NCBI RefSeq assembly: GCF_027595985.1
Contig: NC_073311.1
Span: forward strand, 51,623,292 to 51,687,291
Source of the DNA: Sorex araneus
Taxonomy: Eukaryota; Chordata; Mammalia; Eulipotyphla; Soricidae
Length of the DNA: 64,000 nt
Direction: 5' to 3'
The notes under the pieces are model-generated. The model worked only from the letters and a program-made list of their open reading frames with translations, was not told where the DNA came from and did not search any database. The position numbers and the translations under genes were made by a program. Positions 2,331 to 21,623 of the stretch are shown in pieces (the stretch's first letter is position 1; each line of letters begins with the position of its first letter).

Positions 2331-2689
2331 TAGACCCTTAAATCACAAATCAAAAGACACAATGACATCAGAAGATATAAATCAATAATTCTTGGGATCT
2401 AGTTTATACCTATTCCTAAAGGATTTTAGTGATTTCCCATTTTGTATCATTCCTGTGGAAATTCACTTCTAAACCACTCATTTGGAGACTGAATTTAGAC
2501 AAAATCTAGCTTTATCTTTATAAAAGCTAGGGAATTTCACAAAACTTATTGCTGTATTTTAAGAATCTATACTAATTGTAAAGCTTCTGTCAATGGAAAA
2601 TGGCTCAGTATATGCATTTTTCTAATGATTCCATTTTTATTGAGTTAAAAGGAGAGTAAAAGAGAAGAAAAGTGCCTGCCATAAAGGTA

Positions 2690-2795
2690 ATCTGGGTCTG
2701 GGATGAAACAAGGGAAATTGGGGGCAGTGTTGATGTGAAATATACACTGGGTGAAGTGACAGGTGTCACAGCATTAAACAATTATATGAAAGTTT
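2690..2795 (+). mobile_element. L1 3' tail fragment, old
   Basis: This segment runs from a GGGAAATTGGGGGCAGTG-like part through TACACTGGGTGAAGTGAC to a diverged end. It resembles the 3' end seen on younger elements here (CACTGGTGAAGGGATGGGTG then GTGATTCAATAAAA). A counterpart sits at 16470-16565 in copy B. Confidence 0.45.
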
Positions 2796-2799
2796 TTAA

Positions 2800-3935
2800 C
2801 TTCTGATTAATCATTTTGTAAAACTGTAAAACTAAAAGTCATTCACCAATTCACCAAATTGGGTCATGCTCACTAATAATGCCATTTTAAATCGAAATAT
2901 TTAAAATTTAACACTCATTTTTATCACTTTGTTTTTTTTTTAAATTTAGTACTGTTACATAAACAATACATTTGTTACCTGTAATTTCATGGTTTTTAAA
3001 ACATGTTTTTTAAAATATGTGCAGCTACTTAAAAAGTGAAATAATAACTATTTTAAAATAATTGATGATTATTTACTTATTATGATATCACTAAATACAC
3101 ATATTACATTTTTATGATGATGGCAATGCCTAGTGACCAGAAAAATGAATATTTTGGAAATCTAACATTAAATTAAAACATAATGCCCGTGGCACTAAAA
3201 ATAGATGTTGTGGAGAAACTAAGACTAAGTTCAAAGAATTAGTAGCATTCAATATAAAAAGTAACATATGTAAAATTAATCTATCAACATTTTTCAAACC
3301 TAAATAAAAAATGCATAGTTCTTATGATATAAAATATTTATTTGCAAAATAAATATAATTAGAAAATAATTTACATTCAATTAAAATATTTATATGAATG
3401 AATTTTTATTACAGAGACATAAATAATAATATATAGAGCGATAAACTTTAAAACATGAAAGAATATATTTAAAAATGAATTAATTGAATCAATGTTGCAA
3501 AAATGATGGTTTTATAATGATGTATACAGCTGCAATTGATTTTCAATGGTTTATGAGAGCCTTGTGAACATAATAAAATAACAGATTTGCAAAAGTAAGA
3601 AATAAAAATCAAAAATAGAGAATTAAACAATTTTCACTGCTTATAAAACAAGATGATCCACCAGGATAGATTTTTATTCACACACAATCTGTACTGTATA
3701 CACATAAACAATGCACATAATCATAACATATAAGTAATGATTCTATGCATGATAAATACACAAATAAGATAAACTTTTATGTTCACATACATCATAGCTG
3801 CAGTACAAATTCATAATTCTTATGATATTATAACATTACTGAACTGTGATGTTCCTCCAGCAGACACTAGACAAGATCACCTGTAATGTAGACATTAAAG
3901 TTCATTTTAAGTTAATTAAATAAAATTTAAAATTA
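2800..3935. other. AT-rich duplicon sequence without a gene
   Basis: Very AT-rich DNA. It is shared with copy B (16570-17300) up to about 3490, after which copy B lacks about 1.9 kb present here. I see no exon, RNA gene or intact mobile element. Confidence 0.5.
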
Positions 3936-3939
3936 AAGG

Positions 3940-4652
3940 GGGCCACCACTTTTGCAAGGCCATTTTCTCGGGGCCACTCCAGTTGGGGCCACTCCAGCTG
4001 GGTGCAGGTGCCATCCCTCGCCTGCCCCCTAGGAATCCCAGCGGCTGTCATCTTCTAGAACTCGGCAAAAAGCTCCAGGTACGGGTCATGGTGGTTGGAA
4101 ATGCCAGACCTCACGAGACAGGTTGAGTCGGTCCTTCTCCTACCCCCCTCCCATGGGACTCTGAGATGACACCCACACACAGCCACCATCTGCTTAAGCT
4201 CCCACACGGTCATGATCCAGAGACACACAAATGAATCTTGGACCCCAGAAACTTGCTGCAGCGATCTCTCCAGACCCTAATTATGAAAAGTTTAGAATTC
4301 CTAGAGCTCCAAGCCGCTCTTGCAGCCACGTGACATTGTATTGTATCCATAACAAGCAATACAAAACACATTGTCTAGCATTGCATTTTTGGCAGGTATG
4401 AGGGGTGGTGGGACTGGGCTCAAATATCAAAGGTGACCAACTTAGAGAAAGAGTATTGTGCAAATTGTCTGCCATGTAGTCAAGGGTAGGTGTGGAATGG
4501 GGGTGGGGATGGGGATACTGGGGACTTTGGTGGTAAAAAACGTGCACTGGTGAAGGGATGGGTGTTTGATGATTATATGAATTTAGATTTTGTCTAAATT
4601 CAAACATGAAAGCTCTGTACTGTACCTCATGGTGAATCAATAAAAAGGGGGG
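3940..4652 (+). mobile_element. Composite retroelement with L1-type 3' tail
   Basis: GC-rich sequence starts at about 3940 inside an AT-rich background. It ends in the tail motif CACTGGTGAAGGGATGGGTG, then GGTGAATCAATAAAAAG, as on L1 tails elsewhere in the window. AAATTAAA followed by GGGG occurs on both sides, but the right-hand copy abuts a SINE starting GGGGCC, so the target-site duplication is only tentative. The 5' part does not read like L1 coding sequence. The element is absent from copy B. Confidence 0.5.
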
Positions 4653-4659
4653 AAATTAA

Positions 4660-4832
4660 AAGGGGCCAGAGCAGTAACCCTGAGGGTGAGGAGCTTGCCT
4701 TAGACTTGGCTAATCTGGTATGACCCCCTGAGCACTGCCAGGAGTGCTCCCCGAGCACAAAGTGAGGAGAAAATCCTGAACACCACCAGGTTTTACCCTA
4801 AAGCAAAAATAAATAAAATAAAAATTAAGAGT
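4660..4832 (+). mobile_element. SOR-type SINE, sense, diverged
   Basis: It starts GGGGCCAGAGCAGTA, has a degraded promoter region, and continues through CCCTGAGCACTGCCAGGAGTG to an A-rich end (AAATAAATAAAATAAAA). It directly follows the composite element. Confidence 0.7.
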
Positions 4833-5131
4833 GGTTACTCAATCACAGAAGTCATATTCAAGAGAAATGTAGGACATTCCTAGTTTGCAGAAATTTTTCT
4901 AACAGGAGTTTACCTAAAAGTGCAAGGAATACCAAATACATGAATATTCTTTTATGGCTTAAAATTCACTAATACATCCCTAATTAACTCAGCAATTAAG
5001 GTTAAATGGACAGAATGAATTATCACATTACGTATAAATGGAAAGAAAATTATGAAATTAAGTCTATTGTGTACAGATATAAATAGGAAGGGAGGAAGGA
5101 GAGAATAAAAAGCAAAAAGAACTCAAGAAAT

Positions 5132-5215
5132 GAGAGAGAGAAGGAGAGAGAGAGGGAGAAAGAGAGAGAGAGATAAAGAGAGAGAGAGATACAGAGATAA
5201 AGAGAGAGAGAGAAA
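5132..5215 (+). repeat. Purine-rich (GA)n tract
   Basis: Interrupted GAGAGA repeat with GGAGAAA and GATAAAG variants. It is followed at about 5270-5440 by an old SINE fragment in sense orientation (CCCAGGTGGTTCTATCC, then GACCCCCTGAAATTGCC). Confidence 0.8.
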
Positions 5216-6069
5216 TAAACTATACAAAAGAAAACTGGAAGGCTGAATTAGGGGCAATGCAAGGAAAGTAAAGGGTCAGAGAGCAAGCACAGAGCATAAG
5301 GATGAGGGACAGGCAGACCCAGGTGGTTCTATCCTTAGAACCACATGTGACCCCCTGAAATTGCCAAGAATGATCCACAAGCACAGTGCCAGAAATATCT
5401 CTTGAACACCTTGGATGTGGCTTAACAGTCCAGGTTTGGGGAAAAAGAAGTAGCAAAGGAAGTAGAAAGAAGAAACTGATAATTACTAGAAACATCAGAA
5501 TGGCAATTAGGGAGCACCAGAGCCAAGATGTTTTCATGATAATACCGAATAATGGTAAAAATGACTTTTGAGAACGTTGGAAAAACAAAAAGCTTCATTT
5601 TCAGCTGTGATGCTTTTTATGCACATAAACAGGTAATAATACAAAATTATAAATATATTTTAATGTCTACAGCAACTGAAAATCTTAGAAAATGAAAATT
5701 ACAAAAATGCATTACAACAAATAGGCACAGAGTCCTTAGCACTGTTCAATTTGACACCAAACAAACGCATAAAATATACATGGTCAGTGCTATCTTCCTT
5801 TCAGTTGGATCCTGCTTGATCTTCAGCACTTTGTATGTTCCCCAAATCATTGCTAGGAATGACCCCTGAGCACGGCTGGAGTACTTTATTTCCTGCCCGA
5901 TATATATATGAGCACCCTTCAATGATATAGACATATATATGATATAGGTATAGACATATAGTTATCTATATGTAAATATGTCAATAATATAGACGTGTGT
6001 GTGTGTGTGAGTGTGAGTCCTATCATACAATTATTATATGGTGATACAATAAGCAAATGCTTTCTTATG

Positions 6070-6320
6070 TACAGCACTGTACAGCACTGTCATCCCATTT
6101 TCATCAATTTGCTTGAGTGGGCACCATAATGACTCCATCGTGAGACTTGTTGTTACTGTTTTTGGCATATCGAATACGCCAATTGTAGCTTGCTGGGCTC
6201 TGCCGTGTGGGTGGGATACTCTCAGTATCTTCCCGGGCTATCTGAGAGGGGTGGAGGAACCAAACCTGGGTCAGACACGTGCATGGCAAACCCTCTACCT
6301 GCTGTGCTATTGCTCTACCT
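6070..6320 (-). mobile_element. SOR-type SINE, long form, antisense
   Basis: It reads CAGCACTGTCATCCC, then GAGACTTGTTGTTACTG, GGCATATCGAATACGCC and the reversed promoter region ending TGTGCTATTGCTC. It is flanked by CTTATGTA on each side. It is absent from the matching place in copy B near 18165, so it was inserted after the duplication. Confidence 0.85.
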
Positions 6321-6434
6321 TATGTAGCTTCCTTATGTCACCTTGATAAAATCTAAGTATAGAGTTATAAATAAAAACTTACTCTAGTCTGTGATATTGT
6401 CTTAAAAAAATCTCAAATAAATATAGATACACAC

Positions 6435-6635
6435 AGATTTTATGTTTTTTTGTTTTTGTTTTCTCTTTGGGTCACACCTGGCGATGCACAGGGGTTGTCC
6501 GGGCTCATGCACTCAGCATTTACTCCTGGCCGTGCTCAGGGGGCTCAGGGAGATATGATTATGGGATGCTGGGAATAGAACCCAGGTCGGTCGTGTGCAA
6601 GGCAAACGCTGTGCTATTGCTCCAGTCCCCAGAGA
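6435..6635 (-). mobile_element. SOR-type SINE, short form, antisense
   Basis: T-rich start, GGGTCACACCTGGCGATGC, reversed B box GAACCCAGG and reversed A box TGTGCTATTGCTCCAG. Near-identical ACACACAGATTTTA and GACACACTGATTTTA flank it. Copy B near 18270 carries only one such site, so this insertion is younger than the duplication. Confidence 0.9.
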
Positions 6636-7039
6636 CACACTGATTTTAAATACAAAAATAGTACATCCACTCACTGCAGTTTATTTTAGAATTAATGGTA
6701 AACTAATTTTACCATTAGTTTACAAACACAAAATGGAAAATATTTGTTATTCCAATCTAAACAAAAACAATAAAAATTATCACACTGATAGAATTATAGC
6801 ATCTAGTAGAAAAATGGGAATATTCTTCTATTGAAGAAAAATGTAAATTTCTTTAAGTATGACAAAAATTCAATAAGCCTTATATTTGGGATAAAATATA
6901 GAAATAATTTCCCTGAAATAGGAAAGGTACATATAGAAACTTTACACTAATTACTAAAACTTTACTTTTGTACACTTCAATTTTATTTGGTAAGGTCATT
7001 ATTACATGCAAAATGAGCTAGTATCTTTAAGATTATTAA

Positions 7040-7045
7040 TTTATT
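7040..7045 (-). promoter_or_regulatory. Candidate polyadenylation signal of KLRC
   Basis: AATAAA on the minus strand, 25 bases after the KLRC stop codon. The same hexamer is kept at 18644-18649 in copy B. A further AATAAA lies at 6982-6987. Which is used cannot be told from sequence, and 25 bases would make an unusually short 3' UTR. Confidence 0.3.
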
Positions 7046-7069
7046 CAACAGAATTCATATGTAGCTGTA

Positions 7070-7184
7070 CTAATTCTGAAGTTTATGCTTGCAATAATAA
7101 GAATGTGGATATGTGCAAATGTCTGCATTGAGGCTAGGTGAGACAATAACACAGTTAGATTCTCCAGCTGATTTTTCTTTAATC
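7070..7184 (-). CDS. KLRC1: KLRC coding exon 6 (CTLD third part, stop)
   Basis: The acceptor is TTATAG at the upper end. The exon begins in phase 2 and encodes residues from [11 protein letters not shown] to [10 protein letters not shown], then TAG. It carries the last CTLD cysteines (ESNCVIV, DICTY, YYCKHK), matching the human NKG2A order. It ends two residues beyond the human CKHKL terminus. Confidence 0.93.
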
Positions 7185-8590
7185 CTATAATGGAAAAATA
7201 TGCATAAATATGTTAGCACTTTTTTAGCAGGCAACCCACTAATCAATAACATTTCTTTTGTAAAGGAAGTAACTAAAGTATTGAAAATGGAGAAAAGATA
7301 ATTTCCAAAAAATTTGGATTCGAAATCTAACCACTCCATATTTTAATATTCATATGAAAAAATGCTAGCAAACAGTAATTTCTTCATGCTATAATTTAAC
7401 AAGTTAAGATTATTATAAAATGTTATATTTTCTCTATACATTTCAAATATTTAAAGAAAACAAAAACTTACTTTAGTTTGGAAATTGAACCATTTATTGA
7501 CATCCATGGATGATGTGTGGTGTTACGAAATATTCCAACCCAACTTGGAGGTAATATGGAGACCAGAAATTTCTATTTGAAAATATATAGTGTTCATTAC
7601 GAGGAATTTTATTATTTAAAAGATGCAAGTAGCTATTTTTTCAAAGATTCTTAATTTAAAAGTGAAAGGCACTGCTAAATTTCTATTTGACTAAAATAGA
7701 GATTAATGATTTTCAAATTGCCTAAAATTGTGTTACAATTTTGCTTCTGATTTAAATTTCTGGATATAAAAAATTAGTGGCTTGGGTCTGTTTCTTATTT
7801 AACAAGGAAAATGAAGTGCACATAATTTATTTATGTTGATCATTTCCACAGACCTTGAAACCAATTAATTGTCACTGTCATCTCGTTGCTCATCCATTTG
7901 CTCAAGCGGGCACCATAAATGTCTCCATCATGAGACTTGTTGTTACTGTTTTTGGCATATCAAATATGCCATGGTAGCTTGCCAGGCTCTGCCTTGGGGG
8001 CAAGATACTTTCGGTAGCCTGCCTGGCTCTCCGAGAAAGAGATGTAAATGTAAATTGTTACGTTACATTTTTACTTTGAGTTTGATTTTATAAGGAAACT
8101 AACAAAAGATTTCATAACGAGTTGGCAGTCAGAAAATGATAACTGGATATCTAAAATTATTTAATTCAGGGCTACATCTAGTTGTGCTCAGGGATCACTC
8201 CTGGAGGTACCAGAGGACATATATGGTACATATATGGACATATATGGTCAACTAGGGTTAGTTTCCTCAAGGTCATAAGGCCATACCTTACCCCTGTACT
8301 ATCTCTAAGCCAACTGCTCTCTAAGCCAAGATAAGCAAAGATCAATGCCTCTTCACTGAAACAGCAATCTGTTCAAGCTGCCATACTTATTTCTCTAAGT
8401 TCGTTCCTGCTAATAACATTTTTTACTAAAATTCTAACGTAAAAGTTAAAGGACTCTGAAAGACAAAAAGTTTTCTCCAGAGTTATAAAACAACAGGTAT
8501 GGAAAACACTACTATAGATGACCCAACAGAAGAGCTAGACTTGCTGCTTCCCAACACCAAACTACAGAAGAGGTGGCTCAGGGAAGCCAT

Positions 8591-8625
<35 letters not shown>

Positions 8626-11600
8626 CTCTGGCTCTGGCTCTCTGGCTCTGGCTTTCTGGCTCTCTCTCTCTGACTAATAAACAAAGGTTATAAATTACTC
8701 TCAATAACGTTGTGAAGGCATTTGAAAAGATCATCACCATTTTGTTAATTTTTGGAAAATGGTGACATCCAGGAATATAGTTCAAGTGGTAGGATCCTCA
8801 TGTTCTGTAAATATGAAGTTGTGGATTCAACCCCAGCAACGTAAAACATATATATTTATATACAAAACAAAAGAAAATATTGATAGAAGGGATATATCTA
8901 GAAGTAATCAAAAGACATACATAGTTAATGTCATCAACAGTGTTTAAATGTAAAGAGATTTTTCTGGAAAAACACACTAAATACTAACACGATTAAATGA
9001 ATAAGCCTGTGCACCTTTGCATACCTATAAACACTTTGAATAATCTATATTAGAGTTGTAACAATGAATTTTATATGGTTGTATGTTTATTTTTTAAGAA
9101 AATTATAATTTTCCAAATGTATATACAATATGTAAGTTTAATGAAAATACCAACACTGAAGCAACCATTCCTAAAAGTGAAAAAAAACATATCTATATAT
9201 ATTTATAATAAATCATATATAAAAAAAAATTTGCATCCTACAGACCTGGTGGGTTTTTTATTTTTATTTTTATTCATTTCATGAGACTGGAGCCATAGCA
9301 CAGCGGGTAGGGTGTTTGCCTTGCACAAGGCTGACCCGGGTTGATTCCTCCATCCCTCTTGGAGAGCCCAGCAAGCTACCGAGAGTATCCCACTGGCATG
9401 GCAGAGCCTGGCAAGCTACCTGTGGCGTACTCAATATGCCAGAAACAGTAACCAGTCTCACAATGGAGATGTTACTGAAGCCCACTTCAAGCAATCGGAC
9501 GACAGTGCTACAGTGCTTTTCCTTTTATTAAATTTATCTTGCTAGAATGTTTAGAAATTGTTTGATAATTTTGAATGTACTGTTCATACTTTGCTTTCAC
9601 TATCCAAGATTCTCATTTGACTTTTTGATGATAACAGAGTGACTGACAGAACGGCCTTTGAAGCATGGAGTGTTTTTATGTCACTGGCAGACTGAAAAAT
9701 GTGCCAATTTCTTATTGCATTTGTGAGCACAGAATAACACTTGATTCATTTGAAGCTAACTAAATCCACTTAAATGGCTATCACTAGGTGTAATATCAGC
9801 AAATATTATATCTTTAATTAGCTTAAATGGAAGAAAAAATTTAAAAACAGTTGTGAAAACATGTTTTTCTAGAAAAAAGTAAGAATGATAAATCAAATGT
9901 GCATTATGACATGAAAGAAAATTGTAGGACTGAAATATTAAAAGTCAATATGTACAGTGTACAAAATATACAGTAAAAATATGCGAAAGTGAATAAGTAT
10001 TAACTCAAATGTCTTTTGTAATGTTGTTGTCACGTTAAACACTTACCATTTCTTCTTCACTCTCTATATAAAGCAGGCGAGACCGGCGAGAATCACAGGC
10101 CACCACACTCTCGATCCATGACATTTTTTCATGATTTGTATAGTAGCAGTTGTTGAAATATGTAAATCCCTCAGGAGGACAGTGAGCACAAGGAGGCACC
10201 AGAGAGTTATTTTCAGCTATTAATAGGAAAGTTAATTACAAACATCAGATAGAACTGCTACACGCGCATAGGTAAAAACATGCATGTATATTGCATATTG
10301 TGCACTGTCAGGATGTGGTACATCACAGCACAAGTCTCATGCAAACACACCCAGTAAGGGTCAGTTCTCATCCCTTAATTTAAATGTTGATATAAGACAA
10401 ATACAGCACTAAAAATTCCCACTCTATATATCTACATTAGCCACAAACAAACAATTTTATCGTTGAATAACTTATTCATTTTTAGCTGTAAGATATTTGA
10501 ACCAAAATTTGTAAAGAAAATTATAATAAGTAAGTTATTCTTTATATGTTGTTGCATACCAATTACTTTTTATGAACTCTCATTTCCTTATTTTTTAACT
10601 ATGTTTTCTCTTAAATTGGCTAGCATTTCTACTTAGTCCAAGATATACAAACTCTAAAATGTACTATAAAAACTTTTAAAATCAGTATTCACCTTTCTGA
10701 GTGCTCGTTGTATTAATTGCGGAAGAATTATTCTGCCTTAGAGTCTGGGTAGCTAGAAGAAAATTAAGCACAACCTATAAATATAAATGGATTCAACTAT
10801 ATCACAATAACATTAGTGTATTAGAGGACAATTTTTGCATTGTTAAAGATTAGAATCATATTCAATAAAATTGTGTGTAAAGTAAAGTAGTATTATTGAG
10901 AGAGGGTACTAATTCTAAGAAGAATATGGACAGAGAGACAATAGCAGAAAGAAGGAAAGAGAGAAGTAGAGAGAAGAGAAATAAAGCAAACCCAAAAAGT
11001 ATAAAGACAATTCAGACTGAACTTCACATTCTCAGCAATCCCAGAACAGAATACTTTAAAATAAGAGGAAGAGAAATTACGCTGGTGACTCCATCTAAGA
11101 AAATTAATTTTACTAAGGAAAACAATATAAGAATAAGTTTGAGTGGAAAAATATTTTAAAAGCTTACAGAAATGAAGTTACATCTCCCTCTGTATTTGGT
11201 TTAACAAAGTTAAAAAAATTTACATTTCCCAATAAGGTATTTTAGTATCCAAAATATGTTTTTATTACAAATTCAAAATAATCAATCCACGCTAGTCTAT
11301 ATATACTTGCATTAATGAGAGATCTGTTCCTTAATATTATAAAATCTTTGACAAAGAGAAATTACGCAGGTGAATTCATCTAAGAAAATTAATTTCACTA
11401 AAAATAACAATATAAGAATTAAGTTTGAGTGGAAAAATATTTTAAAAGTTTAAAAAATGAAGTTACATCTCCCTCTGTATTTGGTTTAACCAAATTAAAA
11501 ACAATTTACATTTCTCAATAAGGTATTCTGGTATTCTAAATTATGTTTTTATTATAAATTCAAAATAATCAATCTACACTAGTCTATATATACTTGGATT

Positions 11601-12317
11601 AAAATGAGAGATCTGTTCTTTAATATTATAAAATCTTTAGTGGAGGTGAGATCATCTGTAAAAGTTTCCTTTTTTTAAAAATTTTAAAAATTTACTTACA
11701 ATGAGTAGTAATCACTCTAATTATTATAATGCACACCAAGACAAAGCAAATTATTCCCAGGACCCCAGCAATGAGCTTCTCTGGAGGTGACAGTAATCCT
11801 ATGGGATTGAAATGAAAACACTGAGAATAGAAAGATGGAGAGAACTATTTAGAAGTGCGATTCTGTTACCATTTTGGACTCTAGGTCCATTGCAATCTTT
11901 CTCCCAGAACACTGCATTGCATTTTTAGCAAGTGCATAGCTCTATGATTTGTTCAACAATGCCTAAACAAAACTAGTCTTCAGAATTCATATTAGAATAT
12001 CATATTCAAATTAACTCTCTGATTGTCCAAAATGAAAAATACTGAGTTTCCTCTCTTCTCTCTCCCAACACTCTGCAACCCAACTGCCCGTTCTCGAACT
12101 GTTACATCTTACATGTATATAAAAGTTTACCTTTGCAGTGGTAGTTCTTGTCATTTGCCTGAGGAGACTGAGTAGCATTTTGAAGATTTAATTCTGCATA
12201 GTATATTTCTTGTTCTGTTCCTGAAGTGAAGCCTTTAGCACCTCTAGGTTTTATTTGTTGTTTTTTTGACTTTTTAGTCAAATTTAGCTCTGCATATGTT
12301 GTTTTTTCATTACTCAT
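7070..12317 (-). CDS. KLRC1: NKG2A-like NK receptor (KLRC family), complete gene
   Basis: Coding exons: complement join of 7070-7184, 7472-7572, 10047-10216, 10693-10752, 11700-11798 and 12131-12317. The total is 732 bases, 243 residues (human NKG2A has 233). All junctions are GT-AG, with phases 1,1,1,0,2. Residues 1-62 are cytoplasmic, with TTYAEL near residue 8 and IYYAEL near residue 40. The transmembrane segment is about 71-92 and carries Arg90. The stalk has NNSS and NTTS N-glycosylation sites. The CTLD keeps CAHCP, NNCYY, SWIE, the WVG motif, HHPW and the C-terminal CKHKL. By family knowledge it is a type II membrane protein of NK cells that pairs with CD94 and binds MHC class I-type ligands, recruiting phosphatases through ITIMs. 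Met at 12317 is chosen over the upstream in-frame Met at 12344 because the protein then aligns with human NKG2A from its first residue. Paralog naming (KLRC1 against another KLRC) is by motif content only. Confidence 0.92.
7472..7572 (-). CDS. KLRC1: KLRC coding exon 5 (CTLD second part)
   Basis: This 101-base exon has acceptor AAATAG and donor GTAAGT. It encodes [15 protein letters not shown], then [14 protein letters not shown]. The WVG motif and HHPW are the family hallmarks. NTT and NGS are potential glycosylation sites. Phase is 0 in and 2 out, as in human KLRC genes. Confidence 0.95.
7868..8045 (-). mobile_element. SOR-type SINE, long form, antisense, 5' truncated
   Basis: It starts TGTCACTGTCATCTCG, passes through GAGACTTGTTGTTACTG and GCATATCAAATATGCC, and stops after CTCCGAGAAAGAGA without reaching the promoter boxes. 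It is absent from copy B near 19765. An older SINE fragment shared by both copies follows at about 8165-8310 (CAGGGATCACTCCTGGAGG). Confidence 0.75.
8593..8672 (+). repeat. (CT)n / (CTGG)n microsatellite
   Basis: A CT dinucleotide run passes into CTCTGG and CTGG repeats. A longer, differently interrupted CT tract stands at the equivalent place in copy B (20284-20395). Confidence 0.9.
9283..9522 (+). mobile_element. SOR-type SINE, long form, sense
   Basis: It starts GAGACTGGAGCCATAGCACA, has an A box (TAGCACAGCGGG) and B box (GGGTTGATTCC), then GAGAGTATCCC, GGCGTACTCAATATGCC and a GACAGTGCTACAGTGC end. It lies just past the last base at which copies A and B can be aligned. Confidence 0.9.
10047..10216 (-). 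CDS. KLRC1: KLRC coding exon 4 (CTLD first part)
   Basis: 170 bases, acceptor TTAATAG, donor GTAAGT, phase 1 in and 0 out. It encodes [19 protein letters not shown], then [20 protein letters not shown] and SEEEM. By alignment with human NKG2A, the first Cys of CAHC is the candidate for the disulfide with CD94. The CPPEGF position has Phe where human has Trp. Confidence 0.95.
10693..10752 (-). CDS. KLRC1: KLRC coding exon 3 (stalk)
   Basis: A 60-base exon, phase 1 on both sides, acceptor TTCTTCTAG and donor GTGAAT. It encodes [20 protein letters not shown] and aligns with the human NKG2A stalk (NNSS and TQK shared). It contains two N-glycosylation sequons. Confidence 0.92.
11071..11640 (+). 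repeat. Tandem duplication, two units of about 285 bp
   Basis: GAGAAATTAC begins units at 11071 and 11356. Both run through ATCTCCCTCTGTATTTGGTT, CTAGTCTATATATACTTG and ATTATAAAATCTTT. The array lies in the KLRC intron between coding exons 3 and 2, and ends about 60 bases before the exon 2 donor. Confidence 0.92.
11700..11798 (-). CDS. KLRC1: KLRC coding exon 2 (transmembrane)
   Basis: A 99-base exon, phase 1 on both sides, acceptor CCCATAG and donor GTAAGT. It encodes [18 protein letters not shown], then [15 protein letters not shown]. The stretch from about residue 71 to 92 is the membrane span. Arg90 sits where human NKG2A has Ile and one residue from the membrane Lys of human NKG2C. The start GLLSPPEKL resembles NKG2C more than NKG2A. 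Confidence 0.95.
12131..12317 (-). CDS. KLRC1: KLRC coding exon 1 (cytoplasmic tail)
   Basis: 187 bases from ATG to the donor GTAAAC, ending in phase 1. It encodes [13 protein letters not shown], then [21 protein letters not shown] and NDKNYHCK. It is collinear with human NKG2A over all 62 residues. The second tyrosine motif (IYYAEL) fits the ITIM consensus. The first (TTYAEL) has Thr at the -2 position. Confidence 0.95.
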
Positions 12318-12359: not shown

Positions 12360-13405
12360 GTAGATTTGAGAAAAATAGTACATAACAGCAACGTGGTAGA
12401 ACAGGAACTGGGTGGGGTGGAGGGTGTGTACTAGAGTTCATTCCACAGTTGAAGAATCTACAGCTATTATATAAATTCTTGGGTCCTTAAATAAGGGTCT
12501 CATGGCAAAAAAAAATAAGAAAAACTTTATTTATAAAATATTCTATAATTGACAATATTTTATTACTGGAATGATACACATTGAAAATCTGTGAGGAATC
12601 AAGATTCTGACAGTAATATGCCTATTTATTTAAAGTCAGATTGTAATGATTTAATAACATGAAAATGAATACCTGTGTTAAAATTAAAACTGTCATCAAA
12701 AAGTCACTGGTGATTATCAGTATTTTGAAATATAATAATCACTAAAGACAGTTTATAATCTTCAAATTATAATAGGAAAGTAATTATTGAATAGCTTGAG
12801 GCTGAAATAGGAAAATGGCATACATTTCAAGTTATTGCATTATGCACATTACATTGTAATTATTTACATATTTAGCATCATAAAAGTAATTTATTAACAA
12901 TTTAGTAACAATAGTAGGCAACAACTTCTGAATGTGAGTGGACAGAGAACTGGAAAAAAATCTTAAGTTCACAAAATATACAACATCAGGTATAATGTCT
13001 CAAGAATTCTAAATCTAAAGTTGCTATTTATCATTATTTATCATTGTTCATCTTATGGGTGGTTATCAGCTATAGCAAATAATAATTGTTTAAAATAAAT
13101 AAGCTATACACAAAAGAGATTGCTAAGTGGTCTTTTTACTTATAATATTGAGGATTTTAAGGAAAAATGTAAAGAATACCATGTTGTAAAATGTTACATA
13201 ACATAGTAAATTTATTCAAAATATAAAACTGAAATCTAAAATATAAAAGAAATCACAAATGTACTTACTTTAGATAAATGAGTTCAACAAATGAAAGTGT
13301 TGGTTTACAAAAAAACATGTGGGTGCCAATTTCCAGAAATATCCTATGATCAGTGAAGTTCACTTCAGCTATCTAAGTGATTTAAATAATTCACATAAGG
13401 TAATT
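12360..13405. other. AT-rich DNA upstream of KLRC exon 1
   Basis: No coding exon was found. Any 5' UTR exon and the promoter of the minus-strand KLRC gene would lie here, but I cannot place them. From about 13410 the sequence becomes duplicon copy B. Confidence 0.4.
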
Positions 13406-13685
13406 TCTAAGTCTTTTGTTAATTACCTTTTCAAATTTATTGTGACAACAAAAAAATTGTCAGTTCTAACTACTTTCAAGTTTTTGAAATTTCTAAATTA
13501 AATTTTATGCTTATAAAAGCTTGAAATTTCACATGAAAATATGTTTGTGGGAAATATAAAGCATTAAAGTATACTCAACTAAATCACCATAAATTTGATT
13601 AAATATGAAATAATTACTCAATGTGATATTCAGTGACTTATTATCCAATGATACCTAGCTTTCTCCCTTTACATGAATGTTTATT

Positions 13686-13703
13686 AAAATGTTACAAGTC
13701 AAG
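13686..13703 (+). repeat. Target-site duplication, left copy
   Basis: The 18-base AAAATGTTACAAGTCAAG is repeated exactly at 15046-15063. Copy A at about 1536-1555 has one diverged version and no insertion. Confidence 0.92.
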
Positions 13704-13853
13704 TCCCACTTCGCCGCGCCCGCCGCTCCAGTATGACTGAGGAGGACAAGAGAGCTGCTTTGGACACCAGCATTCCACTGAACAACCTGCAGTATATGAT
13801 TTGAGCGTTTCCGCCAGGCCCCCCGTGCGGGGGCCCGGCGTTTCTCTTTTTTT

Positions 13854-13902
<49 letters not shown>

Positions 13903-15045
13903 TCTCCTGGGCACAGCACAGCTTCCACCCCACTTCTCTGAGCACAAAATGGAGACACGCACCCAACTGCATGGCGTGGCTGGCGGGAGATCGATGGTGG
14001 GGAAGTACCGGTCTCCGTCCACCTCGGACACTTTCCCACTTCCGCCCGTGCAGGGGCCCGGTATTTCTCTAGGTTTTCCCATCTTATTAGCACCATAAAA
14101 GGATAAAAGATTGTAGCGATAGAATTTCAGGCAGAATTTTCCCTGGACTTTATACAGAAACCCCAAACCGCGCGACCTAATGTCATCTAATCATCAGCAA
14201 TATGAAATGGTTCCTTTTTAACGGGTCGGACTTTGGTGGGAAACCCTAACAAGAATAGTAAGTTTTTTGTTGAAATATTGAAGGCAACCAAAATGGTAGC
14301 CATCTCTCTAGATTGAACTAAGCCATATCCCCACGCCAGTTGAGAAGAAATATCTTTCTTTCTCGGGAAGAAACGCGGCGTGGCGTTAACCATAGTATGA
14401 TGTCCATTAAGTTGACACGGACCTGGTGGCATGGGAATGGGATACAAGGGAATAAAGTATTATGTACATGGAACAGCGGGACGCTGGTGGAATCACGAGT
14501 CGGGGCCGATACCAGCGCACTACTTTTGGTTCCAGAAACTGCAGACTTTCTACCAGACTATCAACTAAGCCAGAGCCCCACGCCGGCTGATGACAGGATA
14601 TAACCATCTTTTCCGGTTTTTTTTCCTTTGTCAGGCACCGTGGTGAATACTAAACAGGCGTGAACTCAGTGGCGCGGGACGAGGGGGGAAAAAATAGAAA
14701 AGATATGTAACAAACAACGGGACTTAATATCTTTACATTCTCAGCAATGGAGAACTATCAAATGATTCCTTGACAATAGGACTGTCTTTTTCCTATTGGC
14801 GGGAAACCCCAGCAACAATAGCGAGTTATGTGTTGAAACATAGAATGTAACCAAGATAAACGAAATGAAACTTATCAATTACAAGGGCGGGGACGGGGGG
14901 GTGCGGGAGGGGGCAGGAGGTATACTGGGGTGGTTGGTGATGGAATAGGGGCATTGGTGAAGGGAAGGGTGTTTGAGTATTGTATAATAGACATAATCCT
15001 GAGAACTATGTAACCCTCCACATGGTGATTCAATAAAATGAAAAA
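13704..15045 (+). mobile_element. Composite non-autonomous retroelement with L1-type tail
   Basis: A 1342-base insertion between exact 18-base direct repeats. The 5' end is CpG-rich (CGCCGCGCCCGCCGC) and is followed by a hairpin-like GGCCCCCCGTGCGGGGGC, then (CT)n at 13857-13898. The middle holds paired modules: GTGGGAAACCCTAAC near 14237 against GCGGGAAACCCCAGC near 14799, and GAACTAAGCCATATCCCCAC near 14316 against CAACTAAGCCAGAGCCCCAC near 14563. The 3' end, from about 14880, matches L1 tails in this window and finishes GTGATTCAATAAAATG plus A's. No reverse-transcriptase-like frame is visible, so mobilisation by L1 in trans is inferred. Confidence 0.8.
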
Positions 15046-15063
15046 AAAATGTTACAAGTCAAG
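15046..15063 (+). repeat. Target-site duplication, right copy
   Basis: Exact repeat of 13686-13703, directly after the A-rich tail of the inserted element. Confidence 0.92.
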
Positions 15064-15109
15064 ACCTAACTTATTCAGGCAGAAATATAGATGCTGTTAT
15101 CTATCTACT

Positions 15110-15860
15110 TGTTTGTTTGGATTTAGGGTCTCACCCAGAAGTACTCTGGTTCTGTGCTCCGGGATCGTTACTGGTTGGCACATGGACCAAATGAGGTACA
15201 GGCGATCAAATCTGGGCCTGACTTATACAAGGTAGTTTGGCTCCAAGATCATTTTTTTTAAAGCAGGGAGGGCACACTTGGCAGTACTCAGGTTCATTTC
15301 TGAGTCAGCGCTCATGGATGACTATTTGCAGTGCTCAAGGGGCCATATGTGGTGCCAAGATCAAACCAGGGTCAACAGTGCAGGGCAACCTCCCTACCCA
15401 CCTTACTATTATTTGAGCTCATTCAAGACACTATTTTTAAACTACCACTTAATAAAAAAGGGGACAAACAGAAAAGTAGCTTTAATTGTGTTTGTTAGGG
15501 TTTAGGGCCACACTGCAATGCTCAGTACTTATTCTCATGCTTCGGGATCATTTTTCTGCAGTTGCTCAGGGGACTATCTGAGATGTCAGGGAGGGAAGTT
15601 GGAGGGGCCAGGCACATGGCCAGTGCACTGACTACTGCTGTCCTATCTCTCAGCTCTATGGCAAAAGCAGATTGGGAGTGGGGCAGCGGGGGAGAGCTTG
15701 TTTTGTGGTGACCCCTGGCTATGCTTACGGCTTACTCCAGGCTCTATGCTCATGGTCACTCCTGGCTGGGATTGGGGCCCGACAAGTAGTGACAGAGACT
15801 GAATCTGATTCAGCCATGTGCAAGGGCCCGACCCACTTCATTATCATTTGGCCCCCAAAA
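15110..15860 (-). mobile_element. Old SINE fragment cluster (copy B)
   Basis: Counterpart of 1595-2330, with the same order of four diverged antisense SINE-like segments (for example GATCAAACCAGGGTCAAC near 15360). Confidence 0.6.
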
Positions 15861-16024
15861 GTAGACTTTTAAATCACAAATCAAAAGACACAATGACATC
15901 AAAAGAAGTGCATCATTAAATCTTGGAGTCTAGTTTATACCTAAAGGAATTCTTTTAATGATTTCCCATTGTTGTATCCACAAAGAAGTCTATCATTCCT
16001 ATGGAAGTTCACTTCTAAACTGCT

Positions 16025-16264
16025 CACTGTCACTGTCATCCCCATTGTTCATCGATTTGCTTGAGCAGGCATCAGTAACATCTCCATTGTGAGACTTGTT
16101 ACTGTTTTTGGCATATTGAAGATGCTGCGATTAGCTCACCAGGCTCTGCCTTATGGGCGGGATACTCTCGGTAGCTTGTCAGGCTCTCCGAGAGGGGCAG
16201 AGGAATTGAACCCTGGTCAGCTGTGCATAAGGCAAATGCCCTATCCGCTGTGCTACCGCTCACT
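16025..16264 (-). mobile_element. SOR-type SINE, long form, antisense
   Basis: It starts GTCACTGTCATCCCC and ends TGTGCTACC. It is flanked by GCTCACT at 16022-16028 and 16258-16264. It is absent from copy A near 2478, where the two flanks are joined. Confidence 0.88.
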
Positions 16265-16734
16265 GGAGAATGAATTTAGACAAAATCTAGCTTTATCTTT
16301 ATGAAATCTAGGAAATTTTCACACAATTCATTGTTGTATTTTAATAATCTGTACTAATTTAAGGATTCTATAAATGGAAAATGGCTAAATATATGCATTT
16401 TTCTAATGATTCCATTTTTATTAAGTCAAAAGGAGAGAAATAAAAAAAGCGCCTACCATCAAAATAAACTGGGCATGTCGTGGTAGAAGGGAAATTGGGG
16501 ACATTGGTGGTGGAAAATGTACACTGGGTGAAGTGACAAATGTTGCAGCATTAAAAAGTTAAATGATATTTTTCACTTTCCATTAGTCATATTATGAAAT
16601 TGTAAGACTAAAATCATTCACTAATTCACCAGATAGGGCCATGCTCACTAATGCTGCCCTTTTTAATTTGAAGTATTTGAAGTTTTATACCCATTTTATC
16701 ACTTTGTTTTCTTTTTAAATTAAATAGTGTCACA

Positions 16735-16810
16735 TAAAAAATAATACAATTTGGGCGTCCTGGTGGGAAAGAAAAAAAATTAAAAAATAATAAAAAATAA
16801 TACAATTTGG
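16735..16810 (+). mobile_element. 36-base micro-insertion with 20-base target-site duplication
   Basis: TAAAAAATAATACAATTTGG occurs exactly at 16735-16754 and at 16791-16810. Between them is a 36-base insert that starts GCGTCCTGGTGGGAAAG and becomes A-rich. A long exact direct repeat around a short A-tailed insert is the signature of an extremely truncated L1-mediated retroposition. Copy A near 2955 has no such insert. Confidence 0.75.
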
Positions 16811-17382
16811 TACATGAGAATATATGGTTGATTCTGGAGTTATTTACAAAATAAAATAAAATAATAACCATTTAAAAATAATTGATTATTATTCACTTAT
16901 GATGATGTGAGTAAATACACATATTACTATTTAGGATGATGGCAATACGAAAAATGACTATATTGGAAATCAAAAATCAAATTAGCATATAACATATGTG
17001 GCACTAAAACTATACATTGTGGAGAAACTAAAACAAGTTCAAAGAAATAGTAGTGTTCAGTATAAAAGAGTAACTAACTTATATGTAAAATTAATTCTAT
17101 CAATATTTTTGAAACCTAAAAATATGCATAGTTCTTATGACATAAAAATATTTATTTGCACAATAAATGTAATTGGAAAATTATTTACATTCAATGAAAA
17201 TATTTATACAAATATATTTTTATTTCAGAAATACATTTAATAAACATTTAGAATAATAAAGTTTAATACATGAAAGAATATATTAAAAAAAGAAATCAAT
17301 TGAGTCAGATTTGGAAATAAAAAAAGGAGCAAGGAAAGTAAAAGAAAGAAACTGATAATTATTAGAAACATATGACATTATC

Positions 17383-17632
17383 AGGATGGAGCAATTGCAC
17401 AGTGGGTAGGGCTTTTGCCTTGCATGCAGTCAACCTGGGTTCAATTCCTCCGCCCCTCTCTGAGTGCGAGCTACCGAGAGTATCCCACCCGCACGGCAGA
17501 GCCTGGCAAGCAACCTGTGGCATATTCAACATGCCAAAAACAGTAACAACAGGTCTCACAGCAGAGACATTACTGGTGCCTGCTCAAGGATATTGATGAA
17601 CAAAGGGACAACAGTGCTACAGTGCTACAGAA
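17383..17632 (+). mobile_element. SOR-type SINE, long form, sense
   Basis: It starts GGATGGAGCAATTGCACAGT, has B box GGTTCAATTCC, and ends GACAACAGTGCTACAGTGCTAC. It is absent from the matching place in copy A near 5500. Confidence 0.88.
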
Positions 17633-18044
17633 ACAGATGATAATGCAAAATTGTAAATACATTTTAATCTCTACAGAAACTAAAAAATCCTAGAAAATGA
17701 AAATTACAAAGATGCAGTACAACAAATAGACACAGAACTCCTTTGCACTATCCAATGTGACACCAAAGCAAACAAAATATACATGGTAAGGGCTATTTTC
17801 CTTGCAGCTGAATCCTGTTTGATCTACAGCACCTCATATGTTTCCCCAGATCATTGCCAGGAATCACCCCTCTTCAATGCTCCTGAGCACTGCTGGAGTA
17901 CTTCAATATCTGCCGTATATATATATGTATATATACATATATATGTACACATATATATGAGCACCCTTCAATGGTGTAGACATATATATGATATAGACAT
18001 AGACATATATAGATGTCTATATGTCGATATGTCAATGATACAAA

Positions 18045-18049
18045 CCTGT

Positions 18050-18088
<39 letters not shown>

Positions 18089-18115
18089 TGTCTGTCTGTC
18101 TGTCTTTCTGTCTGT
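18045..18115 (+). repeat. (GT)n followed by (TCTG)n microsatellite
   Basis: A GT run passes into TCTG repeats. Copy A has only a short GT run at about 5995-6010, so the tract expanded in copy B or shrank in copy A. Confidence 0.92.
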
Positions 18116-18673
18116 GAGTCCTATCATACAATTACTATCAGGTGATATAATAGTGAATGCTTCCTTATCTAGCTTTGATAAAATCTAAGTATATAGTTAT
18201 AAATAAAAACTTATTCCAACCTGTGATATTGCGTTAAGAAAACATCTCAATATAAATATAAATACACACAGATTTTAAAAACAAAAATAGCACATCCACT
18301 TACTGTAGATTTATTTTAGAAGTGGAGGATTATTTTAACATTATTTCACAAACATAAAATGGAAAATATTTGCTATTCCATTTAAAAAAAAATAAAAACT
18401 ACCATCACTCTTTATTGAATCTAGTAAAAAAATGGGAATATTTTTCTATTGAAAAAATGTGAATTACTTTAATGTAAGTATGAAAAAAATTCAATAAATC
18501 TCATACTTGGGATGAAATATAGAAATAATTTCCCTGAAATAGGAAGAAACTTTACGGTAATTACTAAAACTTAATTTTGTACATTTCAATTTGGTAAGGT
18601 CATTATTAGATGCAAAATTAGTTGTTCTCTTTAAGATTATCAATTTATTCAATAGAATCCATATATAGCTGTA

Positions 18674-18791
18674 CTAATTCTGAAGTTTATGCTTGCACCA
18701 ATATGAATTTAGACTATTGCAAATCTCTGCACGGAGGATAGATGAGAATAATAAAACACAGTTACATTCTCCATCTGAAGTTTTCTTAATC
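18674..18791 (-). CDS. KLRC paralog coding exon 6 (CTLD third part)
   Basis: 118 bases, acceptor CCATTACAG. It encodes IKKTSDGECNCVLLF, then SSILRAEICNSLNSYWCKHK and LQN, then TAG. It is one codon longer than the copy A exon. The three conserved cysteines remain (NCVLL, EICN, YWCKHK), and an extra Cys (GEC) lies two residues before the first. Confidence 0.85.
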
Positions 18792-18982
18792 CTGTAATGG
18801 AAAAAAAGGCATAAATATGTTAGCACTTTTTAGCGGCAAACTCACTAGTCAGTAACACTTTCTGTGTAAAAAAAAATTAATGTATTGAAGATGGAAAAGA
18901 TGATTGGGATCAGAAGACTAATCACTCCATACTTTAAAATTTATATGAAAAAATCGTTAACAAGCAACAAGAGATTAATAGA

Positions 18983-19260
18983 GCACAGTTATGTTCTCAA
19001 AATGATTTATTTAAATTCTGTAATGAGAGTAATGCATAAATACATTGTCAGTTTTTAGCAGGAGAATCACTATACAGTAACATTTTTGGGGAAAGGAATG
19101 TAAAAGGAATAAACTATTATATTAAAAGTGACAAAATGAAATTTTCAAGTATTTTGAAGTAAGGACAACTAACCACTTCATACTTTAATATTTGCATAAA
19201 AATTCATTTAAAAACAATATTTTCTTTATGCTATTATTTAGCATGTTAATTAAGATTATT
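18983..19260 (-). pseudogene. Remnant of a further KLRC exon 6 with its upstream intron
   Basis: CACAGTTATGTTCTCAAAAT near 18984 and GCATAAATACATTGTCAG near 19032 repeat, in diverged form, the acceptor-side end of exon 6 and its intron at 18757-18975. The exon-like part is only about 35 bases (18984-19017), so this is a local tandem duplication that copied the exon edge but not the rest. Confidence 0.7.
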
Positions 19261-19318
19261 ATGAAATCTTGTATTTTCTCTATACATTTAAAATAGTTAA
19301 AGGAAATAAAAAACTTAC

Positions 19319-19419
19319 ATTAGTTTGGAAGTTGAACCATTTATTGATGTCCATGGATGGTGTCTGCTGTCACGAAATATATCAACCCATAATGGAGGTG
19401 ATATGGACGCCAAAAATTT
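19319..19419 (-). CDS. KLRC paralog coding exon 5 (CTLD second part)
   Basis: 101 bases, acceptor GGGATAG, donor GTAAGT. It encodes KFLASISPPLWVDIF, then RDSRHHPWTSINGS. Asp replaces the conserved Gly of the WIG or WVG motif, and Leu replaces Ser before it. The FRNTT glycosylation site of copy A has become FRDSR. Confidence 0.88.
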
Positions 19420-20283
19420 CTATCCCAGAAACATTCAATGTGTATGATGAGAAATTTTATTATTTTAAAGATGCAAATAGTTGTTTTTTCAAAGGATTCT
19501 TAATTAAAAAATAAAAAAGCAGTGCTTTTTTCACTTTGACAGAAATAGAGATAGATTATTAATGCTTTTCACATTGTCTAAAATTTTATTATTATTTTGT
19601 TTTGATTTAAATTCCTAGATATAAAAAATTAGCAAGTTTGGTCTGTTTCTTATTTAACAAAGAAAATGAGGTGCGCATAATTTATTTATGTTGATAGAAA
19701 TAACACACTAAATACATTTCCAGCTACTGTGACATTTATTTCCCCAGACCTTGACACAAATTAATGATAACTTTTACAGTTTTACTCAAGATTGATTTTA
19801 CAAGGATTTAACAAAAGATTTTATAAGGGATTGGCAGTGAGGAAATTAACAATAATTGGATGTCCAAAATTATTTGTTTAGGGGCTACACCAAGTTGTGC
19901 TCAGGGATCACTCCTGGAGGTACTTGGGGGACATATGTGGTACCAGGGGTCAAACTAGGGTTAGTTTCCTCAAGGTCATAAGGCCGTCCCTTACCCCTGT
20001 ACTAGCTCTAAGCCAACAACTGCTCTCATTTTTAGCAAGATAAAGCAAAGAACAATCCCTCTTTACTGAAAGAGTCCAACAATTGGGTCAAGCTTCCATA
20101 GACTTATTTCTGTTAGTCCCTGCTAATAACATTATTAAATGAAATTCGAATAGGTGAAAAGTTTTCTCCTGAGTTATGAAACAACAGGTATGAAAAAACC
20201 ACTATTACAGATCACCAACAGAAGACCTAGACTTGCTGCTTCCCAACATCAAACTACATAAGAGGTGGCTCAGGGCAGCCATT

Positions 20284-20395
20284 CTCTCTCTCTGTCTCTC
20301 TGTCTCTCTCTTTCTCTCTCTGTCTCTCTCTCTCTCTCTCTATTGCTCTCTCTCTCTTTCCTTCTCCTTCTTTCTTCCCTCTCTCTCAACTAACC
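20284..20395 (+). repeat. (CT)n-rich tract
   Basis: Pyrimidine-rich run of CTCT, TCTG and CTTC units, the copy B counterpart of 8593-8672. Confidence 0.9.
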
Positions 20396-20399
20396 ACAA

Positions 20400-21125
20400 G
20401 TGTGTGTGGGGCTGAGGGTAGGTAAGATAGAGAAGAGACCAGTATGACAATAATAGCTGGAAATGATCATGCTGGACAAGATCTGGGGGTTAAAAGTAGG
20501 TAAAGGGTTATTCTTAATGACCTTTCAATATCAATATTGCAGCCATTCTCATTTATAAATCTCAATTTTCACCAGTGAATTTTACCAACTGCTTATAATT
20601 TCAAAAACAAACTTTTGCCCTTTTATTCATGCCTCACTCTTCAAATAAAAAAAAATAGATCGTGGAATTCATGCTCAATTCAATCAGCTTAATTAATGGC
20701 TGACTAGATTGCAGTACTACGTTTAAAAAAAATAGATTGACAAATCAATTAAACAAAGGAGGGGAAAAGGTTCCAAGTAATTTTATATGGACATCATTAC
20801 CCTGATAATGAAAAAAGAAGACTAGGATAGCACTCAAAACCAAAAAATAGCAGTATTTCTGATATATAGAGATGTAAAGTTCTCAACAAAACACTATCTT
20901 TCAAATACAACCGTGTTTTTGAAAGATCACTTATCATTGCCAAGCAAGTGTCTTCAAGAAAGTCAAGGCAAGTTCAACCTACGCAAAATTTTACCAGATA
21001 GTTGTTTACAGTGGCCTCTGTGAGCCTTTGTATTTCTATATTTATTGTAATATCTTATTATTTATAATGTATATTGGAGTTTTCACTCTTCTTTATAGGT
21101 TCTATCATTGAACAAAAACACAAAG
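20400..21125 (+). mobile_element. L1 fragment insertion, sense
   Basis: Present only in copy B. Bases about 20790-20960 resemble the part of L1 ORF2 that reads GATACCAAAACCAGACAAAG to CTCAACAAAATACTAGC in other mammals. The frame is broken by many changes. The flanking parts look repeat-derived but are not identified. Confidence 0.6.
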
Positions 21126-21287
21126 ATGATACATTAATCTCAATAACGTTGTGAGGGCATTTGAAAGGATCATCACCAGTCTGTTAATTTTTGGAAAATG
21201 GTGACATCCAGGAATATAGTTCAAGTGGTAGGATCCCCATGTTCTGTAAATATGAAGTAGTGGATTCAACCCCTGCAAAAATGTAAG

Positions 21288-21426
21288 GAACACCGAGGGG
21301 CGAGTGCACTCGGGCTCTCCGGGCGTTCTGTGCCCTGGAATGGCAGTGTGGATGGCCGGTTGGTCCCGATTTGTTACTTTTTATCCAATCTTTAAACTTC
21401 CATTTCCTGCACTCTCCTTCCCCATC

Positions 21427-21493
<67 letters not shown>

Positions 21494-21557
21494 CCTTCCT
21501 CCCTCCCTCCCTCTCTCTCCCTCTCTCTCTCTCTCTCCCTCCCTCCCTCCCTCTCCC

Positions 21558-21623
<66 letters not shown>

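What the first reader, a model, noticed from the sequence alone, without database searches (positions are those of the whole stretch)
11700..12317. NKG2A-like chain with ITIM-type motifs and a transmembrane arginine
The KLRC protein carries two tyrosine motifs in its tail (TTYAEL, IYYAEL) and also Arg90 within the hydrophobic span (CIIIIRVI). In human receptors these are separate: NKG2A has ITIMs and no membrane charge; NKG2C has a membrane Lys one residue away and no ITIM. A basic membrane residue is the usual contact for DAP12 or DAP10. One chain could therefore carry both inhibitory and activating potential. I recall receptors of this mixed type being reported in some other mammals, but cannot cite them. 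The sequence is direct; dual signalling is inference.
Basis: partly seen in the sequence, partly recalled or inferred. Interest (0 to 1): 0.78.

Follow-up and report, generated by a model that had tools for sequence, protein, structure and literature searches.

The report
NKG2A-like receptor with membrane arginine
A recently duplicated, intact copy of an inhibitory natural-killer-cell receptor gene has gained one positively charged residue at the outer edge of its membrane span, a mixed inhibitory/activating layout already described in cattle, carnivores and a bat.

Summary
The window holds an open six-exon KLRC (NKG2-type) gene on the minus strand (12317 down to 7070): introns GT-AG, 243 aa, tail motifs TTYAEL and IYYAEL, Arg90 (AGA) near the end of the hydrophobic stretch. 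Its lectin domain matches human NKG2A best. The new evidence concerns Arg90. Four close paralogues in the same genome have the same kind of tail but Thr (ACA) there, so by parsimony Arg is derived in this copy. An older pair shows a similar Thr/Arg difference. Only Val-Ile separate Arg90 from polar residues; in the solved NKG2C-DAP12 complex eight residues follow the lysine. A 19-residue span ending just before Arg90 scores as well as one including it. DAP12 pairing is therefore not the natural inference; an inhibitory receptor with at most FcRgamma-type coupling, as in KIR2DL4, fits better, and is untested. The mixed layout is published for cattle NKG2A-07, carnivore KLRC3 and rousette bat NKG2. 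Verdict: new member of a known kind. No expression data; the genome server stopped answering before a census of the cluster, and the siblings' lectin exons were not read.

The parts
12131..12317 (-). KLRC coding exon 1: cytoplasmic tail with TTYAEL (ITSM-like) and IYYAEL (ITIM); phase-1 GT donor
   Evidence: exon 1 recurs at 95-100% in four other places
11700..11798 (-). KLRC coding exon 2: membrane span [25 protein letters not shown] with Arg90 (codon AGA)
10693..10752 (-). KLRC coding exon 3: stalk ([19 protein letters not shown])
   Evidence: AG acceptor, GT donor, phase 1-1
10047..10216 (-). KLRC coding exon 4: first lectin-domain exon, with the CAHC cysteine pair at the stalk/domain junction
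7472..7572 (-). KLRC coding exon 5: lectin domain
7070..7184 (-). KLRC coding exon 6: lectin domain end and stop codon

Best explanation
Shown: gene structure, tail motifs, lectin domain, and a Thr-to-Arg difference at residue 90 against four close paralogues. Inferred: the product pairs with CD94 (KLRD1) and binds an MHC class I-like ligand; the tail tyrosines, once phosphorylated, recruit SHP phosphatases, so the net output is inhibitory. Arg90 sits at the outer membrane boundary; it either only anchors the helix end or lets part of the receptor pair with an adaptor whose acidic residue is equally shallow, FcRgamma rather than DAP12, as in KIR2DL4. Chain and charge together look like the first step of an inhibitory receptor on its way to an activating one.
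For: Six-exon gene, one open frame, 5 of 5 introns GT-AG. Lectin domain best match NKG2A, 3.7e-34, ahead of NKG2D and CD94, 7 of 7 cysteines shared. Of five near-identical copies 1 has Arg and 4 have Thr (ACA). Over exon 1 to exon 2 the window copy matches L004 at 610 of 617, L003 609 of 618, L001 603 of 618, L005 602 of 617 aligned positions; its closest copy has Thr, so Arg is derived by parsimony. NKG2C with DAP12 (2L35): lysine followed by TIVLIPFL; here Arg followed by VITTH. Position rule (DAP12 partner lysine at 9, FcRgamma partner arginine at 4) in PMC8102735, passages read.
Against: No expression, binding or signalling data. The outer-boundary argument rests on hydropathy with recalled scale values and an ad hoc weighting; a basic side chain can snorkel, and both spans score alike. 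NKG2C's lysine is only one residue away counted from the cytoplasmic side, so DAP12 is not excluded. The position rule is for type I KIR; its transfer to a type II chain is mine. The intermediate-state reading has no test here.
Confidence: 0.6

Rival explanations
1. True dual receptor: Arg90 lies in the bilayer and recruits DAP12 (or DAP10), while the tail recruits SHP phosphatases; output depends on ligand strength or on which adaptor is present.
For: Both signatures on one open chain. Arg90 is one residue from the NKG2C lysine counted from the cytoplasmic side. A 22-residue span including Arg90 scores almost as well as the best span. Mixed chains are reported in cattle, carnivores and a bat.
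Against: Only Val-Ile separates Arg90 from polar residues on the outer side, against eight residues in NKG2C. DAP12 binding is untested; PMC11484026 says nothing is known about the signalling of such receptors (passages), and PMC11376593 reads the bat genes as inhibitory (passage).
Confidence: 0.15
2. Arg90 is functionally silent: it sits just outside the bilayer as a helix-end anchor, and the gene is a plain NKG2A paralogue. (This overlaps with the first branch of the best explanation.)
For: Best-scoring span is the 19-mer that stops before Arg90. The Arg is found in 1 of 5 close copies.
Against: An older paralogue pair shows a Thr/Arg difference in the corresponding place.
Confidence: 0.3
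3. The clustered changes around Arg90 are a short gene-conversion tract from another receptor gene of the cluster that bears Arg, so the charge was copied rather than mutated.
For: 3 of 14 private substitutions of this copy lie in 12 nt (simulated P 0.012 with 3100 places, and 0.017 with the 2530 usable columns). PMC5350243 invokes conversion among KLRC/KLRH genes (section 21 read).
Against: Control: L001 too has three private substitutions within 5 columns, so 2 of the 4 close copies (L001-L004) show such a cluster; the cluster was also looked for after the fact. No donor in the window or in the eight loci held. The genome-wide search did not complete.
Confidence: 0.12
4. Assembly or base error, or a non-expressed copy.
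For: There is a 500-base gap 11 kb away, and a second KLRC copy whose homology ends just before it. Near-identical copies are prone to collapse.
Against: The gene itself has no gap. The changes are substitutions and the frame is fully open.
Confidence: 0.08

Closest known systems
Cattle NKG2A-07 / bota_KLRC1-4 (Birch and Ellis 2007, not seen; as cited in PMC5350243, passage seen)
   Same: KLRC1-type chain with two ITIMs and an arginine in the predicted membrane region, inside a recently expanded KLRC array
   Different: The exact place of the cattle Arg was not available for comparison. The cattle chain is known from a cDNA; no transcript was seen here
Carnivore KLRC3 'dual-purpose' receptors (PMC11484026, passages seen)
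   Same: ITIM(s) plus transmembrane Arg in a KLRC gene
   Different: Presented there as specific to Carnivora. Here 1 of 5 near-identical copies has the Arg, so by parsimony it arose within this family; no carnivore sequence was compared
Egyptian rousette NKG2A/B-like genes (PMC11376593, passage seen)
   Different: Majority of the putatively functional bat genes, read there as inhibitory; here 1 of 5 copies of this family, plus one of an older pair
KIR2DL4 (PMC8102735, PMC1193534, passages seen)
   Same: ITIM tail and a shallow membrane Arg; couples to FcRgamma
   Different: Immunoglobulin-type, type I chain, unrelated fold; an analogue only
Human CD94/NKG2A and CD94/NKG2C
   Same: NKG2A: exon plan and two tail tyrosine motifs (recalled), lectin domain 56 of 117 columns identical. 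NKG2C: basic residue one position away from the cytoplasmic side
   Different: NKG2A lacks the charge (recalled). NKG2C lacks ITIMs (recalled) and has eight further residues outside its lysine

Membership tests
KLRC (NKG2) family | C-type lectin-like domain closest to NKG2 chains | tested here: met
   PF00059 at 1.7e-10; best PDB match NKG2A 3.7e-34, NKG2D and CD94 weaker
KLRC (NKG2) family | Type II chain with tail, span, stalk and three lectin exons, intact frame | tested here: met
   six coding exons, 5 of 5 introns GT-AG, 243 aa; the exon plan of human KLRC1 is recalled
KLRC (NKG2) family | Cysteines for the domain and for the CD94 link | tested here: met
   7 of 7 cysteines of the aligned NKG2A stretch shared; which of them makes the CD94 link is recalled, the link itself untested
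KLRC1 / NKG2A (inhibitory) | Two tail ITIMs | tested here: inconclusive
   IYYAEL fits; TTYAEL has Thr at -2 and fits the ITSM pattern given in PMC11484026 instead
KLRC1 / NKG2A (inhibitory) | No basic residue in the membrane span | tested here: inconclusive
   Arg90 at the end of the hydrophobic stretch; not met if the span includes it, met if the span ends before it; the two score alike
KLRC2 / NKG2C (activating) | No ITIM in the tail | tested here: not met
   ITIM present
KLRC2 / NKG2C (activating) | Basic residue deep enough in the span to pair with DAP12 | tested here: inconclusive
   two outer hydrophobic residues against eight outer residues in 2L35
Dual-purpose KLRC ('KLRC3' of carnivores, cattle NKG2A-07) | ITIM(s) and transmembrane Arg on one chain | tested here: met
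   with the caveat on where the span ends
Dual-purpose KLRC ('KLRC3' of carnivores, cattle NKG2A-07) | Descent from the same ancestral dual gene | tested here: inconclusive
   4 of 5 copies have Thr, which argues for a separate origin; no carnivore or cattle sequence was available for a tree
Dual-purpose KLRC ('KLRC3' of carnivores, cattle NKG2A-07) | Expression and both signals | not testable with these tools
   no reads or cells

The most novel reading that the evidence does not exclude
In this genome inhibitory NKG2A-type receptors gain a membrane arginine repeatedly, at the same outer position, by a C-to-G change in a Thr codon: once in the window copy and once in the older pair L006/L007 (direction not established there). 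The shallow place would couple an ITIM-bearing CD94/NKG2 receptor to FcRgamma, so each Arg copy and its Thr sibling, nearly identical in tail and span, form an inhibitory/dual pair. This would be a live view of the first step by which activating receptors arise from inhibitory ones.
Probability: 0.16. Interest if true: 0.62.

Novelty: new member of a known kind. Interest (0 to 1): 0.36.

Why it matters
Mixed ITIM-plus-charge receptors are known by sequence in several mammals, but PMC11484026 states that their signalling is unknown and suggests some may be evolutionary intermediates (passages). Here close siblings differ at that residue and at only a few others in exon 2 (three differences to L004 and to L003, six to L001), so swapping that one residue could test whether the charge changes adaptor use and net signal. 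It also argues against such KLRC receptors being specific to Carnivora, as the cattle and bat cases already do.

Tried and rejected
DAP12 as the default partner: not adopted, because the charge is at the outer end. 'Unjoined exons or pseudogene': rejected on the gene model, though no transcript was seen. Conversion donor: no second match in the window at up to 3 mismatches; in the eight loci a loose 10-base motif gave only the window copy itself (L002) and an unrelated place in L008. Clustering as evidence for conversion or selection: weakened by its own control, since L001 has a cluster too; after this check I lowered the conversion rival from 0.2 to 0.12 and the novel case from 0.17 to 0.16. 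A match at window 25322-25354 with an Arg-containing stretch (tblastn E 5.6) was taken as chance. PDB search with the membrane span alone gave only unrelated chains at E 0.6 or worse. Structure prediction was not run: the tool takes proteins read letter for letter from DNA, a spliced chain is not that, and I did not send one. Abi-Rached and Parham 2005 is not held; it is cited within PMC5350243. The cluster census failed: six weak exon-2 relatives (47-50% identity, E 0.02 to 0.49: C10 51472311, 51550774, 51601049, 51618322, 52005135, 52022408) were located but never read. One further weak match, on C1 (E 0.65), was not pursued.

Full report
What is there. The finding's coordinates are exact: 12317 is the first base of coding exon 1 and 11700 the last base of coding exon 2 of a minus-strand gene. 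The gene continues to 7070: exon 3 (stalk) 10693-10752, exon 4 10047-10216, exon 5 7472-7572, exon 6 7070-7184 with stop. All five introns are GT-AG, phases match, and the 732-nt coding sequence gives 243 aa. Arg90 is encoded by AGA. Pfam finds Lectin_C at 1.7e-10. The best solved relative is human NKG2A (3bdw_B, 3.7e-34), then another KLRC1 chain (8umo_K), NKG2D and CD94. In the alignment printed there 56 of 117 columns are identical and 7 of 7 cysteines agree. It is a KLRC gene.

The motifs. IYYAEL is a proper ITIM. TTYAEL has Thr two places before the tyrosine; by the patterns given in PMC11484026 (ITIM I/V/LxYxxI/V/L, ITSM S/TxYxxI/L; passage) it is ITSM-like. 'Two tyrosine motifs' is right, 'two ITIMs' is slightly generous.

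The paralogues. The window lies in G000 at C10:51623292-51687291. Exon 1 has eight matches, all on that contig: five at 95-100% (window included) and three at 49-51%. Exon 2 has 14 matches at E up to 1; the five good ones (83-100%) sit by the same five exon-1 places. I could read exons 1 and 2 of L001, L002 (the window gene), L003, L004 and L005; their lectin exons were not read. All five have TTYAEL; 4 of 5 have IYYAEL and L005 has ICYAEL. At residue 90 the window copy has Arg (AGA) and 4 of 4 others have Thr (ACA). From exon 1 to exon 2 the window copy matches L004 at 610 of 617, L003 at 609 of 618, L001 at 603 of 618 and L005 at 602 of 617 aligned positions. Since its closest copy and all others have Thr, Arg is derived in the window copy by parsimony.

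Clustered changes, and a control against them. Of the 14 private substitutions of the window copy in the aligned locus, 3 fall within 12 nt at the end of exon 2 (one silent, Thr-to-Arg, Ile-to-Thr). Under uniform scatter a triplet this tight somewhere has probability 0.012 with 3100 places or 0.017 with the 2530 usable columns. The test is after the fact, and among the four close copies L001-L004 a second one, L001, also has a triplet, within 5 columns outside exon 2. So the cluster is weak evidence for conversion or selection.

A second case. L006 and L007 (C10 about 51.40 and 51.42 Mb) have identical exon-1 proteins with VTYAEV and ITYTEL. Their exon 2 reads VIVTRVIP in L006 (AGG) and IIVTTAIP in L007 (ACG). 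So a second ITIM-plus-Arg chain may exist here, with a Thr sibling, differing by the same kind of C/G change, though the neighbouring residue differs too (Val/Ala). The place corresponds to Arg90 if a one-residue gap is allowed in the span; I placed that gap by hand. Which state is older there is unknown. I read only exons 1 and 2 of these genes. L008 has VTYEEL and ITYAEL in exon 1; its exon 2 was not seen.

Where the charge sits. The NKG2C span in the solved complex with DAP12 (2L35) is [29 protein letters not shown]: eight residues, TIVLIPFL, follow the lysine before Glu. In the window copy Arg90 is followed by VITTH. In a crude sliding score (recalled scale, ad hoc end weighting) the best span is the 19-mer [19 protein letters not shown] that stops before Arg90 (-6.17); the 22-mer ending RVI is nearly equal (-5.99). 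The three Thr siblings scored (L001, L003, L004) prefer a 23-mer ending VII. So Arg90 is at the outer boundary, in or just out. PMC8102735 (passages) gives the rule for KIR: lysine at position 9 pairs with DAP12, arginine at position 4 with FcRgamma (KIR2DL4, macaque activating KIR). Mincle, a type II lectin, couples to FcRgamma through a membrane Arg (passage); its place a few residues from the outer end is recalled. By analogy the shallow Arg90 fits FcRgamma better than DAP12. This is inference.

How it most likely works. As a CD94-paired inhibitory receptor whose tail recruits SHP phosphatases, with Arg90 either inert or giving conditional FcRgamma coupling. Shown: gene, motifs, the Arg/Thr difference. 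Inferred: pairing, ligand, signalling. Not shown: expression.

What is known. PMC5350243 (passages; section 21) reports cattle NKG2A-07 = bota_KLRC1-4 with two ITIMs and a membrane Arg, after Birch and Ellis 2007. PMC11484026 (passages) names carnivore KLRC3 dual-purpose receptors, calls them specific to Carnivora, says nothing is known about their signalling, and suggests some may be intermediates. [quoted passage not shown] Mouse lemur NKG2 chains show varied combinations of these motifs, and DAP12 raised surface expression of two of the five functional chains (PMC2757895, passages). KIR2DL4 is the immunoglobulin analogue (PMC1193534, passage). I found no report for a shrew by the listings (titles and abstract starts) of three searches: 'shrew'+'KLRC' (7 of 7 listed), 'Sorex'+'natural killer'+'receptor'+'lectin' (3 of 3), and Eulipotyphla/Soricidae with NKC terms (15 of 1,132). 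The library is partial and subscription journals are mostly missing.

Verdict. Observation confirmed, interpretation partly supported, kind already known. The added value is that the charge is a recent difference in one of five near-identical genes, which gives close natural comparators, and that a second ITIM-plus-Arg chain may lie in the same cluster. The census of the cluster is incomplete because the genome server stopped answering.

Noticed in passing
window 19321-19419 (exon 5) and 18677-18793 (exon 6), minus strand: Exons 5 and 6 of a second KLRC copy (73% and 56% identical in protein). Homology to the window gene's intron runs up to about 23022, just before the 500-N gap at 23095-23594; exons 1-4 were not found in the window.
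   Followed up: partly
window 1249-9229 against 13402-23022: Tandem duplication, colinear pieces at 76-92% identity, that includes the 3' half and the 3' flank of the KLRC gene.
   Followed up: partly
window 54483-54629 and 60910-61038, plus strand; possibly 50698-50781: Lectin-like exons of another KLR-type gene on the opposite strand: the first is closest to NKG2D chains among solved proteins (9.8e-13), the last matches only weakly (CLEC9A, 0.013). An open stretch at 50698 reads MNAENEVIYANLEHPRL, an ITIM-like tail that may be its first exon.
   Followed up: partly
L006 (C10:51401130-51404318) and L007 (C10:51415345-51418533): Older KLRC pair with identical two-motif exon-1 proteins; L006 has a membrane Arg, L007 Thr in the corresponding place. 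L006's exon 2 donor is GTACGT instead of GTAAGT.
   Followed up: partly
G000 C10 51472311, 51550774, 51601049, 51618322, 52005135, 52022408: Six weak exon-2 relatives (47-50%, E 0.02 to 0.49); five of them lie about 17 or 34 kb from one of the five KLRC copies as if duplicated in units, and the copies beyond 51.97 Mb are in inverted orientation.
   Followed up: no
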